A DNA stretch of 64,000 nucleotides, from assembly GCA_000023405.1 (NCBI GenBank), contig CP001643.1, positions 1,302,001 through 1,366,000 on the forward strand. Reading direction: 5' to 3'. Source of the stretch: Brachybacterium faecium DSM 4810 (GTDB lineage Bacteria; Actinomycetota; Actinomycetes; Actinomycetales; Dermabacteraceae). The notes under the pieces are model-generated. The model did no database searches. It was given only the letters and a program-made list of their open reading frames with translations, and was not told the origin of the DNA. This document shows, piece by piece, positions 31,504 to 44,249 of the stretch. Made by a program: the position numbers and the translations under genes. Numbering within the stretch: the stretch's first letter is position 1; every line of letters begins with the position of its first letter.

Positions 31504-31561
31504 CACTTCTCCTTCCTCATGGAAGGGGCGCGGGGCACCGGCGGTGCTCCACGGAAATCCC

Positions 31562-31646
31562 GACTCCCTACGCCGGTGTGAGCCGGATCAGGTTCGAGGG
31601 TCTGCGCCGTCTCGCGCACTCTCAGCACCGCGGCGGTGCTCCCCTG
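31562..31646 (-). promoter_or_regulatory. TPP riboswitch (thi box)
   Basis: On the minus strand the conserved TPP aptamer blocks appear in order: GGGGAGC, a GC stem, CTGAGAG, ACCCTCGAACCTGATC, the CCGG-CTCACA-CCGG region, and GCGTAGGGAG. It lies about 60 nt before the ykoE start. A GCACC-GCC-GGTGC hairpin at 31535-31547, whose arm matches part of the aptamer, may be the expression platform. TPP binding would switch off the transporter genes. Confidence 0.95.
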
Positions 31647-31666
31647 TCAGTGGATGACGATCCCCC

Positions 31667-39939: not shown

Positions 39940-39945
39940 TCTAGG
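39940..39945. repeat. 6-bp target-site duplication (TCTAGG), left
   Basis: TCTAGG borders the left inverted repeat of the IS481 element and is repeated at 42464-42469. The CTAG in it supplies the stop codon TAG of the transposase frame on the minus strand. Confidence 0.8.
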
Positions 39946-40043
39946 TGTAGTTGGTCATGACGTTGTCGACGCTGGCGTGGAGACGTGAGGCCGGGGGCTG
40001 ATCGCCGCAGGCGGTGTGGGGCCGATGGACTCTTCTATGTCTG

Positions 40044-41114
40044 TCAAGCCATGGCCGGTGCCGCGTGGAGGGCTTCGAGGGTTCGGTATATCCGGCGGGC
40101 GAGATAGCGCTTGAGGCAGCGTCGGATTTCTTTTGTCGTGAGCCCCTCAGCCCGCCGCCTGGCGACGTAGGCGCGCGTCTCAGGGTCGTGAACCATCCGG
40201 GTGACCGTGGCCATGTGGAGCGCGCGATTGAGTCTTCGATCGCCTCCGCGATTCAGTCTGTGGCGAGTGGTGTTTCCCGACGACGCAGGGATCGGACTCA
40301 CGCCTGCCAGTGCCGCGAAGGCAGCTTCATCCCGCATGCGCCCACGGTGTGACCAGGCTGAATAGGCGACTGCGGCGGTCACGGGCCCGATGCCCGCGAG
40401 GTCCAGCAGCGGGGCGGCCTTGCTCTGATGCAGAAGGTCTTCAAGCCGGGAGCGGTTCTCCGCGAGCTCGGCATCGAGTGCACGAATTCGCTTGGCCAAC
40501 CGATGAGCCTCGGCTCGTGCAGCCGAGAGCGCAAGGTTTTCAGAACGAGTGCGCCAAGCAGCCACTTCGATGATCTGACCGTTGGTCAACGGCCTTCGAG
40601 CATCGAGACCGAGATCGGCGGTGCGAAGCAGGGCCGTAAGCGCGTTGACGTTAGCAGTACGTTCAGTGCTCATGTGCTCCCTCGCGGTCGTCAGGACGCG
40701 TAACGCTGGGCGCAAGCCATCATCGGCGCGGGGGTGGCGTAGCCGGTCGTTCTCCAGCGGCAGGACCGCAGCGCCGATGCGGTGCGCATCGAGGGGGTCC
40801 GACTTTCCGACGCTGTGATGTGCCCGTGCATTCATGCGGGCTGCCTCGGCCACCTCGTAGCCGGTGTCGGCGACTATTCGTGCGAGCCGTGCGCCATAGG
40901 TAGCAGCGCCTTCGATCACCCATAGGGCGGCTAGGTCTCCGCCTACGAGACGAGAAGCCCAGTCCACGGCGCGATTCAGGCCGGCGGGCGTCGTCGGGAA
41001 CTGCTTAGCAGCGTTCTGTTCACCGGTGGCTGCGGTCAGGATTGCGTAGCTGTGGCTGCGGGCATGGGTGTCCACTCCGATGACGAACGGGCGGGTATGC
41101 GCGACGATGGCCAT
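40044..41114 (-). CDS. IS110-family transposase (DEDD recombinase)
   Basis: A 356-residue recombinase. The N-terminal RuvC-like DEDD domain shows 'FVIGVDTHARSHSYAIL' (first Asp), 'WVIEGAATYG' (Glu) and 'KSDPLDAHRIGAAV' (Asp pair). A coiled-coil linker follows. The C-terminal Tnp domain has 'LLDLAGIGPVTAA', 'EAAFAALAGVSPIPASSGN' with the conserved Ser, and 'RHRLNRGGDRRLNRAL'. It works with an RNA made from the region just upstream, which specifies donor and target. The frame is complete, so the element looks active. The ATG at 41114 opens the conserved start. Confidence 0.92.
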   Translation of the reverse strand: MAIVAHTRPFVIGVDTHARSHSYAILTAATGEQNAAKQFPTTPAGLNRAVDWASRLVGGDLAALWVIEGAATYGARLARIVADTGYEVAEAARMNARAHHSVGKSDPLDAHRIGAAVLPLENDRLRHPRADDGLRPALRVLTTAREHMSTERTANVNALTALLRTADLGLDARRPLTNGQIIEVAAWRTRSENLALSAARAEAHRLAKRIRALDAELAENRSRLEDLLHQSKAAPLLDLAGIGPVTAAVAYSAWSHRGRMRDEAAFAALAGVSPIPASSGNTTRHRLNRGGDRRLNRALHMATVTRMVHDPETRAYVARRRAEGLTTKEIRRCLKRYLARRIYRTLEALHAAPAMA

Positions 41115-41166
41115 GGCGGTTCGTACTTCCTTCCGAGACGAGACTGATGACGCGGCCGCAAAGGGC

Positions 41167-41369
41167 CGGCGCGAGCCTGGATGGAAGTCACTTCGGGGCA
41201 ATACTGTGATGGGTCACGACCTCGCCGAAGAGACGCGGGACGGACAGTCTTCTGATCAAGCCATCGGAGTGGGCCGGGCGAGCGCCAGCCGCCCTGCGCC
41301 GGAGTCGGACATGTCCATCGAAACGCACCCGTTGGGGGCGAATAGTTGTATGAGCCACGACCTCGGCGC
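41167..41369 (-). ncRNA. candidate bridge RNA of the IS110 element
   Basis: Two similar stem-loops occur on the minus strand in the 5' non-coding end. Both begin with a CGAGGTCGTG-type stem, then a short variable stretch ending TATT, then a small hairpin. The upstream loop (41369-41296, stem GCGCCGAG with CTCCGGCGC) contains TACAACTA and CGATGG. TACAACTA is identical to the 8 bases left of the actual insertion core, and CGATGG is complementary to the core plus right flank (CCATCG). The second loop (41227-41167) contains TCACAG, complementary to the element end CTGTGA. RNA ends are not determined; these coordinates mark the structured core. Confidence 0.7.
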
Positions 41370-42463
41370 GGGAGCGGCACAGTGCCCACCCTGCCAGCCA
41401 GTTCCAGACCAGCCGCTCCAACACTCACAGTAGTTGTAGTGGTGCAGCCAGACGCCGTGACGGTTCCGGCGCTCCTGCTCGGACTCGAACACCTCTGCGT
41501 AGAGGAACTCGTCGACGGTGATCCGCTGGAACCGCTCGACCTTCCCGTTGTGGCGGGGCGTGTAGGGGCGGGTCCGCTGATGGCGGGAGACCTTCCCGCG
41601 AATCGACCTGGCGAACGCGTTTGAGCGGTAGTTCGGTCCGTTGTCGCTGATCAGGCGCGTGATCCGGGTGATCCCGTGCGCGGCGAAAAACGCGAACGCC
41701 CGATGGAGGAATCCGATCGTCGTCGCCGCTGTCTCGTCCTCGAGTGGTTCGGTGTAGGCCAGGCGCGAGAACCCGTCGATCGCCGAGTGAAGGTAGGTGT
41801 AGCCAACCCGCCGGCCCTTCCCCCGCTTCGACGCCCGCCCGAGGGCGCTGTCGCGTCCGTGGACCTTCCAGCCGCCGCCGTCGGGGATCTTCCCGACCTT
41901 CTTCACATCGACGTGGATCATGTGCCCGGGATAGCGGGCGGTGATCGTGCCCGGCTGACGCAGGTTCCCTCCGTCGGGAGTGATGTCGCGGATCCGGTTC
42001 AGGCCCAGGCGGTCCAGCCACCGGGTCACGGTCCGCACGCAGCAGTGGACCCCATGGCCATCGGCGAGCTCACGAGCGATCCGGCGGGCGGACCACTTCT
42101 GTTTCCGCCGCCAGTGCTCGATCAGCTCCACCACCCACCCCTCCAAGCGGGACGGGCGGTGCGCGGGGGCGCTGGAGTGCTCCTCGAGCCCGGCTGCACC
42201 GGCAGCCCGGTAGCGTCCGACCCACTTCGAGAGCGTGGCGCGAGCTATGTGGAACTCCGCAGCGACGTGCGCGATCGGACGACCCCTCGCGAGCACCTGG
42301 TCGACCGCACGCCGCCTTCCGACAGCCGTCAGTGGAGCATTACGGTGGGTCATGGAACGGGTCTCCTCCCAGCAGATGAATGGCTTCAGCACCACCCATC
42401 GTGCCGGTCAGGGACCCGTTCCTTCATCCCCGCTCCGTGACTACAACGTCATGACCCGCAACA

Positions 42464-42469
42464 TCTAGG
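42464..42469. repeat. 6-bp target-site duplication (TCTAGG), right
   Basis: This is the partner of 39940-39945. It contains the TAG stop codon (42465-42467 on the minus strand) of the DUF222/HNH gene. Confidence 0.8.
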
Positions 42470-44249
42470 CGGGAGGCGGGGCCGGCGGAGGATCTGCTTC
42501 AGGTGGTGAGCCCGCCGGCGGCTCGTCGGCCTCCGAGGAGGGCGGCTCCTGCGCGGTGCTGGTCGCCGAGTGCAGCAGCGGCGGCCGCCAGGAGATCCCT
42601 CGCGCGCCGTGCGGGCTGGTCCAGACCCAGGCTGCGGGCGGTGCGTCCGCGCTGCCGGGTGCCTGTGCAGGCCCCGAGGTCTCTCCGGACGCCGTGGAGA
42701 CGGACGCCGAGGAGGCCTCGCCGGTGAGCACCTCGAGCAGCCACAGCCCGTGCTCCTTGAGCAGATTGCAGCGGACGCAGAGCCCCTGCCCGTTCGCGTA
42801 GCTGGTCGGGCCGCCGCGGTGGTAGGGCACGACGTGATCGCTGTGCCGGATCCGCGCGTTGCACCAGGGGGTGCGGCAGGTGGAATCCCGCCACCGGATC
42901 ATCCGGGCCAGCCCGGCCGGGAAGGCGCGCGCCCGTGACTCCATCCCGACCAGATCGCCGGTGCGGGGGTTGACGTAGAGGCGGCGGAAGAAGGCGGAGA
43001 CCTCCTCATCGGGATGGTCGCCCTCGTCATGGCGCAGATGGCCGGGCGGTCTGCCCAGGAGCGTGTCCCGGACGATGTGCGCGGGAATGCTGCCGTAGCC
43101 CTCCAGATGGGCGCTCTCGGCCTCGTCGTCGCGGTCGAAAAGGGCCCTCTCGGTGATGACGATGCCGATCTCGATCCCCGGCGTGGTCCGCGGCCGTCGG
43201 GGAGGCTCCGAGGGTGCGGTCGCTTCCAGCTCCTCTGCTGGGACGATGCCCTCGAAGGCGTCCGGAGCGCTCGCGGCGCTCGAGGTGCGTGCTGCATCCT
43301 CTGTGCTCATCGCCTCGGCGGCAGGTGCCGTGCCCGAGGAGGCTGTGCCCTCGCGCCGGGCGAGGACGGCGTCGACCAGCAGATCGGCCTCGAGCGCGGG
43401 CACCGAGGTCTTCGCCCCGGCGGCGCGCAGCGATTCGGCCTCGGCCTGCAGCGCCGACATCATGCCCACGGCGTCGATCCCGCGCAGCACGGCGCTCACG
43501 CGGGCCATCCCGTCGGCCAGCGGCGTCATGCTCAGGTGTCGGCCCCTCGCCGCGCGCTCCGCACGCTCACGGGAGGTCTCCGGCTCGAGCCGCTGGACCA
43601 TCTCGTCGATGTTCGAGCGCAGGCGCTTGTGCCCTTTCCCGTGCAGGGTGAGGGGAGAGACGCGGATGAGCTCGTCGATGCGCCGGCAGGTCTCCGGCGA
43701 TGCCGTGGACAGCGCACCCGCGACCGTCGAGGCCTGCTGTGCCGTCACCGCGCCCTCCCACAGCGCATCGACCGTGCCCGGCATGTGCTGCACGAGCCGC
43801 CGCGCGGAGGCGAGGGAGAAGGAGGAGGCGGCGGGGGAGACACGACGAGCCAGGGCGATCTCGTTGTTCGCGCCCCTGCCCTGCGCCGCGGCGGGCACGC
43901 CGCGCTGCTCGTCCGCGCGGCGGATCCGCTGCTCGGCGGTGACCTGCCAGGCGGCGTCCATCGCGGAGAGCGAGGAGCGGAGATGATCGAGCCCCGCGAG
44001 CACGGAGAGGGCCTCCTGCGGGGATCCGGGTGCGGTCTCCGGCAGCGGATCCCGCACCGAGCCGGTGCGGGTGAAGGCGGTGAGGGTGGCTGTGAGGAGC
44101 TGGGCGAGGACCACGCGCGCGGCTGCGCTGGCCTCGATCTCGGTGAGGGTGGAGGCGACCGTGTCCAGCACGTCCACCGGCCGCGCGGCGGCGTCCCGGC
44201 GGGGGTCGTCACCACCGGGGCGGGGTCCGTCGCTGTTCGTCGCATCCAT
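42465..44249 (-). CDS. DUF222 / HNH endonuclease domain protein
   Basis: A 594-residue protein of the 13E12-repeat type common in actinobacteria. An alpha-helical DUF222 domain (about residues 60-290) is followed by an acidic linker and a C-terminal HNH nuclease motif: 'STCRTPWCNARIRHSDHVVPYHRGG' begins near residue 480, then 'GLCVRCNLLKEHG' with the paired Cys and the His-Asp-His set. A low-complexity Pro-rich tail ('PPPAPPPA') ends at a TAG that lies in the IS481 target duplication. The biological role of this family is unknown. The ATG at 44249 follows TACGAT by 6 nt. Confidence 0.88.
   Translation of the reverse strand: MDATNSDGPRPGGDDPRRDAAARPVDVLDTVASTLTEIEASAAARVVLAQLLTATLTAFTRTGSVRDPLPETAPGSPQEALSVLAGLDHLRSSLSAMDAAWQVTAEQRIRRADEQRGVPAAAQGRGANNEIALARRVSPAASSFSLASARRLVQHMPGTVDALWEGAVTAQQASTVAGALSTASPETCRRIDELIRVSPLTLHGKGHKRLRSNIDEMVQRLEPETSRERAERAARGRHLSMTPLADGMARVSAVLRGIDAVGMMSALQAEAESLRAAGAKTSVPALEADLLVDAVLARREGTASSGTAPAAEAMSTEDAARTSSAASAPDAFEGIVPAEELEATAPSEPPRRPRTTPGIEIGIVITERALFDRDDEAESAHLEGYGSIPAHIVRDTLLGRPPGHLRHDEGDHPDEEVSAFFRRLYVNPRTGDLVGMESRARAFPAGLARMIRWRDSTCRTPWCNARIRHSDHVVPYHRGGPTSYANGQGLCVRCNLLKEHGLWLLEVLTGEASSASVSTASGETSGPAQAPGSADAPPAAWVWTSPHGARGISWRPPLLHSATSTAQEPPSSEADEPPAGSPPEADPPPAPPPA

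What the first reader, a model, noticed from the sequence alone, without database searches (positions are those of the whole stretch)
41167..41429. Bridge RNA of an IS110 element whose guides match its actual insertion site
Reassembling the interrupted IS481 frame gives the pre-insertion target on the minus strand as TACAACTA-CC-ATCGG. In the element's 5' non-coding end, one stem-loop contains TACAACTA (identical to the left target, 8 of 8) and, after a small hairpin, CGATGG (complementary to CCATCG, core plus right target, 6 of 6). A second loop of the same architecture contains TCACAG, complementary to the element end with core CTGTGA, and GAAGTGACT, which matches GAAGAGTCT at the other end in 7 of 9 positions. 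IS110-family bridge RNAs with target and donor loops are established knowledge. Here the guide-target match can be read from one natural insertion.
Basis: partly seen in the sequence, partly recalled or inferred. Interest (0 to 1): 0.88.

Follow-up and report, generated by a model that had tools for sequence, protein, structure and literature searches.

The report
IS110 bridge RNA with matching guides
A jumping gene of the IS110 family sits inside another jumping gene, and the guide RNA it appears to encode carries short stretches that spell out that landing site and its own ends; this is a well-supported natural example of a mechanism known since 2024.

Summary
A 1,402-bp IS110 element (40029-41430, minus strand) interrupts an IS481 transposase gene. 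Its left end encodes a bridge RNA: a 5' hairpin, then two stem-loops with internal loops. One donor guide is right (RDG TCACAG). The other is wrong: GAAGTGACT overlaps the closing helix of the donor stem-loop and carries no information about the right end (155 of 288 positions, permutation mean 155.1). The true LDG is AGAAGA at 41253-41248; its variable base agrees with the right end in 32 of 32 guide families. Two handshake dinucleotides also fit. Across 36 guide families from 70 relatives, guides match their own flanks far better than others' flanks (0 of 20,000 permutations). A covariance model built without this element finds it at 131 bits. Three about 99% identical relatives sit at the same base of differing IS481 copies; 11 of 11 uninterrupted IS481 sites show the empty target without duplication. 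Expression and activity are untested. Known kind (IS621-like); aiming at transposase codons has a precedent (ISEc21).

The parts
40029..41430 (-). IS110 element, 1,402 bp, inserted in an IS481 transposase gene without target duplication
   Evidence: junctions read directly; length and boundaries by comparison with 3 near relatives; uninterrupted sites
40044..41114 (-). IS110 recombinase/transposase CDS, 356 aa (DEDD_Tnp_IS110 + Transposase_20)
41431..42392 (-). 5' part of the interrupted IS481 transposase gene
   Evidence: 41433-42392: NF033577 IS481, 257.9 bits, cut-off 224
39940..40028 (-). 3' remainder of the IS481 gene and element end (begins CCATCGG); low end approximate
41431..41438 (-). 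left target half TACAACTA
40022..40028 (-). right target half CC-ATCGG (core + right target)
41396..41414 (-). 5' stem-loop of the bridge RNA
   Evidence: consensus fold, (columns 18-36)
41272..41395 (-). target-binding stem-loop
   Evidence: columns 37-171
41343..41350 (-). left target guide (LTG) TACAACTA
41315..41320 (-). right target guide incl. core (RTG) CGATGG
41313..41314 (-). target-loop handshake guide AC, complement of the last two bases (GT) of the element's right end
41189..41271 (-). donor-binding stem-loop
   Evidence: columns 172-262; held-out model match 41358-41188
41248..41253 (-). left donor guide (LDG) AGAAGA, identical to AGAAGA of the right end
41204..41209 (-). right donor guide (RDG) TCACAG, complement of left end CTGTGA
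41202..41203 (-). donor-loop handshake guide TA, complement of the last two bases (TA) of the left target
41187..41195 (-).
41425..41430 (-). left end of element CTGTGA (right donor half)
40029..40035 (-). right end of element GAAGAGT (left donor half)

Best explanation
This is an IS110-group insertion sequence whose left non-coding end encodes an IS621-type bridge RNA. The RNA's first internal loop pairs with the target (LTG with the bottom strand on the left, RTG with the top strand on the right), the second with the joined ends of the element (LDG with the right end, RDG with the left end). The recombinase, bound to both loops, exchanges top then bottom strands at a two-base core (donor CT, target CC). 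Two extra dinucleotides, one in each loop, pair with the other partner's DNA after strand exchange (handshake). Here the guides name the codons Y-N-Y-H-R of IS481 transposases, and the element sits exactly there. Shown: gene, ends, empty site, guide-site matches, their covariation over relatives, conserved RNA fold. Inferred from IS621: transcription, binding, donor core in the circle, order of strand exchange.
For: Recombinase domains; similarity to IS621 and ISCro4 of solved structure. Guides match own flanks: left 7.09 of 8 on average over 34 families against 3.19 for other families' flanks, right 5.47 of 7 over 32 families against 2.61; 0 of 20,000 permutations each; left 7.06 and again 0 of 20,000 when a circular case is replaced. 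RDG is the complement of the left end in 34 of 34 families with four alleles, 7 changes each on the transposase tree. LDG variable base agrees in 32 of 32 families. Handshake pairing 62 of 64 and 58 of 68 with G-U allowed, 0 of 20,000 permutations. Consensus fold: 36 of 60 pairs have a sequence with both sides changed and the pair kept. Held-out covariance model finds the window at 131 bits, E 4.8e-32, once in the whole genome. Insertions of 98.9-99.6% identical elements at the same base in differing IS481 copies. 11 of 11 uninterrupted sites abut.
Against: No RNA data. The single-sequence fold is not more stable than shuffles (z -0.97; 13 of 100 fold as well). No Rfam match. In the window RTG pairs for six bases only (the next base mismatches). 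Three of 34 families do not match their left flank in the allowed register and 10 of 32 score 5 or less of 7 on the right. Permutations ignore relatedness; on the tree most independent-pair tests have too few pairs to reach 0.05, and for a left-target base G the handshake partner did not follow in 3 of 3 pairs. The N-terminal part of the IS621 alignment is weak by itself (9.8 bits). Only one copy exists in this genome.
Confidence: 0.95

Rival explanations
1. Site choice is made by the protein alone (it recognises the IS481 sequence), and the matching stretches in the left end are coincidence or remnants.
For: The closest relatives share the same target, so this site alone cannot separate protein from RNA; no RNA data.
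Against: Guides change in step with targets over 36 families, with 26 changes of LTG on the transposase tree; permutation control 0 of 20,000.
Confidence: 0.02
2. The element and its IS481 host move as one composite unit, so the shared target of the four closest copies is common descent rather than repeated RNA-guided insertion.
For: The four closest copies all lie in IS481 at the same base. Their right flanks (up to 100 bases) are 85-96% identical.
Against: Elements L003, L004 and L014 are 98.9-99.6% identical, yet their left flanks are only 50.4-81.0% identical over 889-999 aligned bases and 62.9-77.7% over the last 300; two of them lie in one genome. Other families sit in unrelated targets that match their own guides.
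Confidence: 0.03
3. One reading: TCACAG (5') and GAAGTGACT (3') are the two donor guides, so the donor loop is read in reverse order compared with IS621.
For: TCACAG is a true donor guide; GAAGTGACT resembles GAAGAGTCT in 7 of 9.
Against: 155 of 288 matches over 32 families against a permutation mean of 155.1; no association. The segment overlaps a helix strand that pairs with CACnnCGATGGC in the consensus fold. AGAAGx upstream agrees at x in 32 of 32.
Confidence: 0.01
4. A bridge RNA that is intact in sequence but no longer active in this strain (relic).
For: Single copy in the genome; no exact free target in the genome.
Against: Open reading frame, ends, all four guides and both handshake dinucleotides are present and mutually consistent.
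Confidence: 0.25

Closest known systems
IS621 bridge RNA and recombinase (Durrant 2024 PMC11208160; Hiraizumi 2024 PMC11208158)
   Same: Non-coding RNA in the left end; 5' stem-loop plus two stem-loops with internal loops; order LTG, RTG, LDG, RDG; donor core CT; handshake dinucleotides after RTG and RDG; recombinase family with DEDD-type N-terminus and serine conserved.
   Different: Only weak protein similarity (38.7 bits); target is a transposase gene rather than REP; target core CC against donor CT; the LDG base two before the core matches the right end in only 3 of 32 families.
ISEc21 (IS110 group; Siddiquee 2024 PMC11187229)
   Same: Upstream non-coding RNA; targets conserved catalytic-domain codons of other transposases (IS3); no target duplication; bottom-strand match 5' of top-strand match (section 12).
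   Different: Here IS481 codons Y-N-Y-H-R rather than codons around the second D of DDE in IS3; donor guides are read here as well.
ISAar29, ISPpu10, ISHne5 (three of the six elements named in a figure legend of Durrant 2024; taken here as its IS110-group examples)
   Same: Bridge RNAs with predicted LTG, RTG, LDG, RDG (legend seen).
IS1111 group
   Same: Same recombinase superfamily, RNA-guided.
   Different: There the RNA usually lies downstream of the gene and the guide order is reversed (PMC11187229 abstract); here upstream and not reversed.

Membership tests
IS110 group (IS621-like bridge recombination system) | DEDD (RuvC-like) N-terminal and Transposase_20 C-terminal domains | tested here: met
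   Pfam PF01548 and PF02371 above cut-off; NCBIfam NF033542 'IS110 family RNA-guided transposase' 167.7 bits over cut-off 140
IS110 group (IS621-like bridge recombination system) | Catalytic D-E-D-D and serine conserved | tested here: met
   Aligned with IS621 8wt6: GVDTHA/GIDTAK, IEG/IEA, KSDPLDA/NKTDTVDA in a weak stretch (9.8 bits), PASSG/YESG in the stronger one (29.8 bits); S241 as catalytic serine from PMC11208158 passages, DEDD roles recalled
IS110 group (IS621-like bridge recombination system) | Long left non-coding end, short right end | tested here: met
   316 nt from 41430 to the ATG at 41114; 15 nt from the stop codon to 40029
IS110 group (IS621-like bridge recombination system) | ncRNA: 5' stem-loop, then two stem-loops with internal loops | tested here: met
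   RNAalifold on 27 sequences; held-out model match
IS110 group (IS621-like bridge recombination system) | Target loop pairs with bottom strand left (5' side) and top strand right (3' side) | tested here: met
IS110 group (IS621-like bridge recombination system) | Donor loop pairs likewise with right end (LDG) and left end (RDG) | tested here: met
IS110 group (IS621-like bridge recombination system) | Handshake guides pair with non-cognate DNA, not with cognate DNA | tested here: met
   non-cognate 57/64 and 49/68 Watson-Crick against permutation means 38.7 and 18.1; cognate 16/68 and 12/64 against 17.3 and 17.9 (with G-U 23/68 and 29/64 against 22.0 and 34.9)
IS110 group (IS621-like bridge recombination system) | Insertion without target duplication | tested here: met
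   flanks abut in 11 of 11 uninterrupted IS481 sites
IS110 group (IS621-like bridge recombination system) | RNA is transcribed and bound by the recombinase; circular intermediate | not testable with these tools
   needs RNA sequencing, pull-down or PCR
IS1111 group | ncRNA downstream of the transposase gene | tested here: not met
   RNA is upstream; only 15 nt follow the stop codon
IS1111 group | Long subterminal inverted repeats | not tested
   not examined
Rfam bridge-RNA family | Match to a curated covariance model | tested here: not met
   no match in the element at gathering score; only two chance-level matches at a lax threshold

The most novel reading that the evidence does not exclude
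The element belongs to an actinobacterial clade in which several families aim at other mobile elements (IS481, IS3 and ISL3 transposase codons; by eye also ends of other IS and REP-like palindromes) and follow their host's codons: the Mycolicibacterium plasmid relative L064 aims at homologous-looking Y-N codons spelt TACAATCA-CC-ACCG, and its guides spell that version. Retargeting in nature would involve coordinated changes in three places: LTG, RTG and the handshake dinucleotide of the donor loop (which follows the target), while the target loop's handshake follows the element's right end. The clade would thus be a set of natural re-programming experiments.
Probability: 0.4. Interest if true: 0.5.

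Novelty: new member of a known kind. Interest (0 to 1): 0.35.

Why it matters
One natural insertion, with its relatives, lets all guide segments of a bridge RNA be read without experiment, and gives 36 natural guide families from a lineage with only weak protein similarity to IS621. That includes separate support for the published handshake rule, with depletion of cognate pairing in the donor loop. Such sets help to choose new bridge recombinases and show how natural elements change target. It does not change the accepted mechanism.

Tried and rejected
They have low absolute match and relatedness is ignored; not pursued.

Rfam gave no bridge-RNA match. The single-sequence fold of 41432-41118 was unremarkable against shuffles; the fold was taken from the alignment instead. 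A sigma-70-type promoter scan found none in 40000-41500.

Cases kept in the counts: L009, L068 and L072 fall outside the allowed register on the left (1, 3, 2 of 8); L038 and L066 apparently have a wrongly parsed RTG (1 of 7). L062's left flank is a tandem copy of its own LTG segment, so its 8 of 8 is circular; with L063 of the same family in its place the mean is 7.06 and 0 of 20,000 permutations reach it. Six family representatives are usable on one side only (L066 and L071 right; L039, L040, L069 and L074 left). My search patterns demand AG[AG]AG in LDG, ATA[GA][AG]AG and TTGAC in the right end, CTG[TC][AG]A or CTCTAA in the left end and T[CT][AG][CG]AG in RDG; only the bases left free there count as evidence, and '30 of 30 with TTGAC' is by construction.

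Data dropped: of loci L001-L075, L001 (the window itself), L023 and L024 (same places as L003 and L014), L059 and L061 (not parsed). Of 42 plasmid records with a match, 12 were fetched. One place at a contig edge (G372:C13) was not fetched. The alignment for the fold used 27 of 34 families with a parsed left end; model R1 used 26 families, without L002 and L003. Four of six flank pieces gave no convincing Pfam family (L012, L033, L064, L066).

Full report
What is there. The window lies in a 3.61-Mb genome held as one contig. Its genus appears to be Brachybacterium: G006 of the same genus has a contig of 602,396 bases, the length of the B. epidermidis record that holds the same relative (inference). 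On the minus strand, 41114-40044 encodes a 356-aa IS110 recombinase. It is similar to IS621 and ISCro4 transposases of known structure at 38.7 and 38.1 bits; the D, E, D, D and S positions align, the first four in a stretch that is weak by itself. The gene lies in an element of 1,402 bp, 41430-40029, which interrupts an IS481 transposase gene (5' part NF033577, 257.9 bits). There is one copy in the genome.

Junctions and empty site. On the minus strand the left junction reads TACAACTA|CTGTGAG and the right one GAAGAGT|CCATCGG. The exact string TACAACTACCATCGG occurs 11 times in 7 of 38 genomes of the genus searched. At all 11 places the reading frame runs through ..HYNYHRPH.., and the window's two flanks, compared separately, abut there with no gap and no duplication in 11 of 11. 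In the window's own genome there is no exact free target, and three places with two mismatches (the backward control pattern has two).

Repeated insertion at one base. Three relatives (L003 and L014 in one genome, L004 in another) have elements 98.9-99.6% identical to each other and 87% identical to the window's. All are inserted at the same base of IS481 genes. Their left flanks are only 50.4-81.0% identical over 889-999 aligned bases, and 62.9-77.7% over the last 300; the right flanks (69-100 bases) are 85-96% identical. The left flanks speak for separate insertions rather than one composite that spread.

The guides in the window. After GTGGCTCA comes LTG TACAACTA (41350-41343), identical to the left target. 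After a small hairpin comes RTG CGATGG (41320-41315), the complement of CC-ATCG. In the second stem-loop LDG AGAAGA (41253-41248) is identical to AGAAGA of the right end. After a hairpin and GTGACCCA comes RDG TCACAG (41209-41204), the complement of the left end CTGTGA. The order LTG, RTG, LDG, RDG is that of IS621 (PMC11208160: section 6 read; passages of other sections).

GAAGTGACT (41195-41187) was taken as the guide for the right end. Over 32 guide families its similarity to the right end is 155 of 288 positions, against a permutation mean of 155.1. In the consensus fold this segment overlaps the 3' strand of the helix that closes the donor stem-loop (columns 252-262 with 172-183; five of its nine bases are in paired columns). 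The AGAAGx segment upstream agrees with the right end at the variable base x in 32 of 32 families, against a permutation mean of 11.3. As six-mers, 31 of 32 are identical; the exception, L071, has AAAAGC at its right end.

Test over relatives. I collected 75 loci from genome and plasmid searches (the genome searches examined 47, 396 and 394 genomes, the plasmid search found 42 records of which 12 were fetched). Of these loci, 70 elements were parsed, forming 36 guide families. With the first member of each family, LTG matches the own left flank at 7.09 of 8 positions on average (34 families), against 3.19 for other families' flanks. RTG matches the own right flank at 5.47 of 7 (32 families), against 2.61. 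None of 20,000 permutations reached either sum. 27 of 34 families have 7 or 8 matches on the left and 22 of 32 have 6 or 7 on the right. One circular case (L062) was replaced in a recount: 7.06, again 0 of 20,000. RDG is the exact complement of the first six bases of the left end in 34 of 34 families, with four alleles (17, 11, 3, 3); on a transposase tree both traits need 7 changes. Independent-pair tests of the donor guides go the expected way, but have too few pairs (2-4) to reach 0.05.

Handshake dinucleotides. In IS621 the bases next to RTG and RDG pair, after strand exchange, with the other partner's DNA; cognate pairing blocks exchange (PMC11208158, section 11 read in full). Here the two bases after RTG pair with the last two bases of the right end in 57 of 64 cases by Watson-Crick rules (62 with G-U); the permutation means are 38.7 and 49.1. 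The two bases after RDG pair with the last two bases of the left target in 49 of 68 (58 with G-U); the means are 18.1 and 26.7. None of 20,000 permutations reached these, and the second count is the same with L063 in place of L062. Cognate pairing is not enriched in the target loop (16 of 68 against 17.3; with G-U 23 against 22.0) and is depleted in the donor loop (12 of 64 against 17.9, 19,986 of 20,000 permutations as high or higher; with G-U 29 against 34.9). The window has both dinucleotides: AC at 41314-41313 for GT, and TA at 41203-41202 for TA. On the tree, the right-end base and its handshake partner agree in 29 of 30 families with 10 and 11 changes; independent pairs reach p 0.016-0.03 for two of three alleles (6-7 pairs) and not for the third (2 pairs). 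The left-target base and its partner agree in 24 of 34, with 12 and 8 changes; no allele reaches 0.05, and for G the partner did not follow in 3 of 3 pairs.

RNA structure. RNAalifold on 27 sequences gives a 5' hairpin and two stem-loops with internal loops. There are 60 pairs, of which 36 have at least one sequence with both sides changed and the pair kept. A covariance model built from 26 families without this element or its closest relatives' family finds the window at 41358-41188 with 131 bits, E 4.8e-32; the only other match in the window is at chance level (11.6 bits, E 0.12). It finds nothing else in the whole genome at E 0.001. It also finds 11 of 11 parsed relatives that were given to it and not used to build it, at 93-135 bits, none of the two unparsed loci and none of eight IS481 loci; one further match is at chance level. 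The single-sequence fold is unremarkable, and Rfam has no match. Both loops carry the same GTGAC/GUCC helix: outside the internal loop in the target stem-loop, inside it in the donor stem-loop. So LTG and RDG follow GTGRCYC, and RTG and LDG precede TGYCC. Pseudo-symmetry of the two loops is already described for IS621 (PMC11208158, passage).

What the clade aims at. By flanking gene pieces: IS481 (window, L003, L004, L014; L064 by eye from HTYN, no Pfam match), ISL3 (L005, L026: Pfam DDE_Tnp_ISL3 above cut-off), IS3 (L033: NCBIfam IS3, 53.7 bits for a fragment, below the whole-protein cut-off). Others lie at what look like ends of other IS (TGAATCGCC|CCGGG) or in REP-like palindromes (L032, L034, L049-L051, L055-L058), by eye. 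This is a selected set and no rate is claimed. ISEc21 is a published precedent for aiming at transposase codons (PMC11187229, section 12 read; section 13 read). Searches for print on IS110 nested in IS481, or on this clade, were looked at as listings only, the best 10-15 rows where there were more. The one listed paper that holds IS110, IS481 and Brachybacterium (PMC10581053, passages) counts IS families per genome and does not mention bridge. This is weak evidence of absence, because most subscription papers are not held.

Mechanism and status. Shown by sequence: ends, target, guides, covariation, conserved fold, repeated insertion at the same base. Inferred from IS621: transcription of the RNA, binding by recombinase dimers, top- then bottom-strand exchange at the core (donor CT, target CC), circular intermediate. 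The finding is a sound and instructive natural example of a known system, with one donor guide corrected and two handshake guides added. I rate it a new member of a known kind.

Noticed in passing
L062 (G534), upstream of the element: The left-end segment up to the LTG is duplicated in tandem. Because the LTG repeats the left target (TGAATCGCCTG), short-homology recombination between flank and guide could explain it: guide-target identity may make the element prone to such duplications.
   Followed up: partly
L055-L058 and L034 (all genome G153): Two different IS110 families in one genome aim at two different positions of what looks like the same REP-like palindrome (outer end CTGACGGCGGCCCAG and centre CCTCGCG|CGAGG); by eye.
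   Followed up: partly
L015 (G002): Insertion with a fair left-guide match but only CAAC on the right, apparently inside a gene for a transporter-type binding protein (by eye): looks like an off-target insertion.
   Followed up: no
L007 (G033): Left flank resembles the ISL3 target of its family (5 of 8), right flank does not (3 of 7) and looks like an IS end: perhaps a later rearrangement.
   Followed up: no
L029 and L030: Very similar left ends, but the donor-loop handshake dinucleotide differs (GT and TT) although the left target end is the same (GA); only TT can pair fully (with wobble).
   Followed up: no
L064 (Mycolicibacterium chubuense plasmid pMYCCH.01): Three IS110 transposase genes within 4 kb; the middle one is the best plasmid match to the window's protein and targets IS481-like codons with its own spelling.
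   Followed up: partly
window 31548-31655, minus strand: TPP riboswitch (RF00059, 72.4 bits).
   Followed up: no
window 42465-44249, minus strand: 594-aa ORF that by eye resembles HNH-endonuclease-like repeat proteins, next to the IS481 end (no family search run).
   Followed up: no
right ends of relatives, e.g. window 40043-40029: TTGACN at or next to the stop codon, 13-17 nt before the end, in the 30 families examined (required by my search pattern); it could be a -35 box of a promoter formed at the circle junction, but no -10 box is evident.
   Followed up: partly
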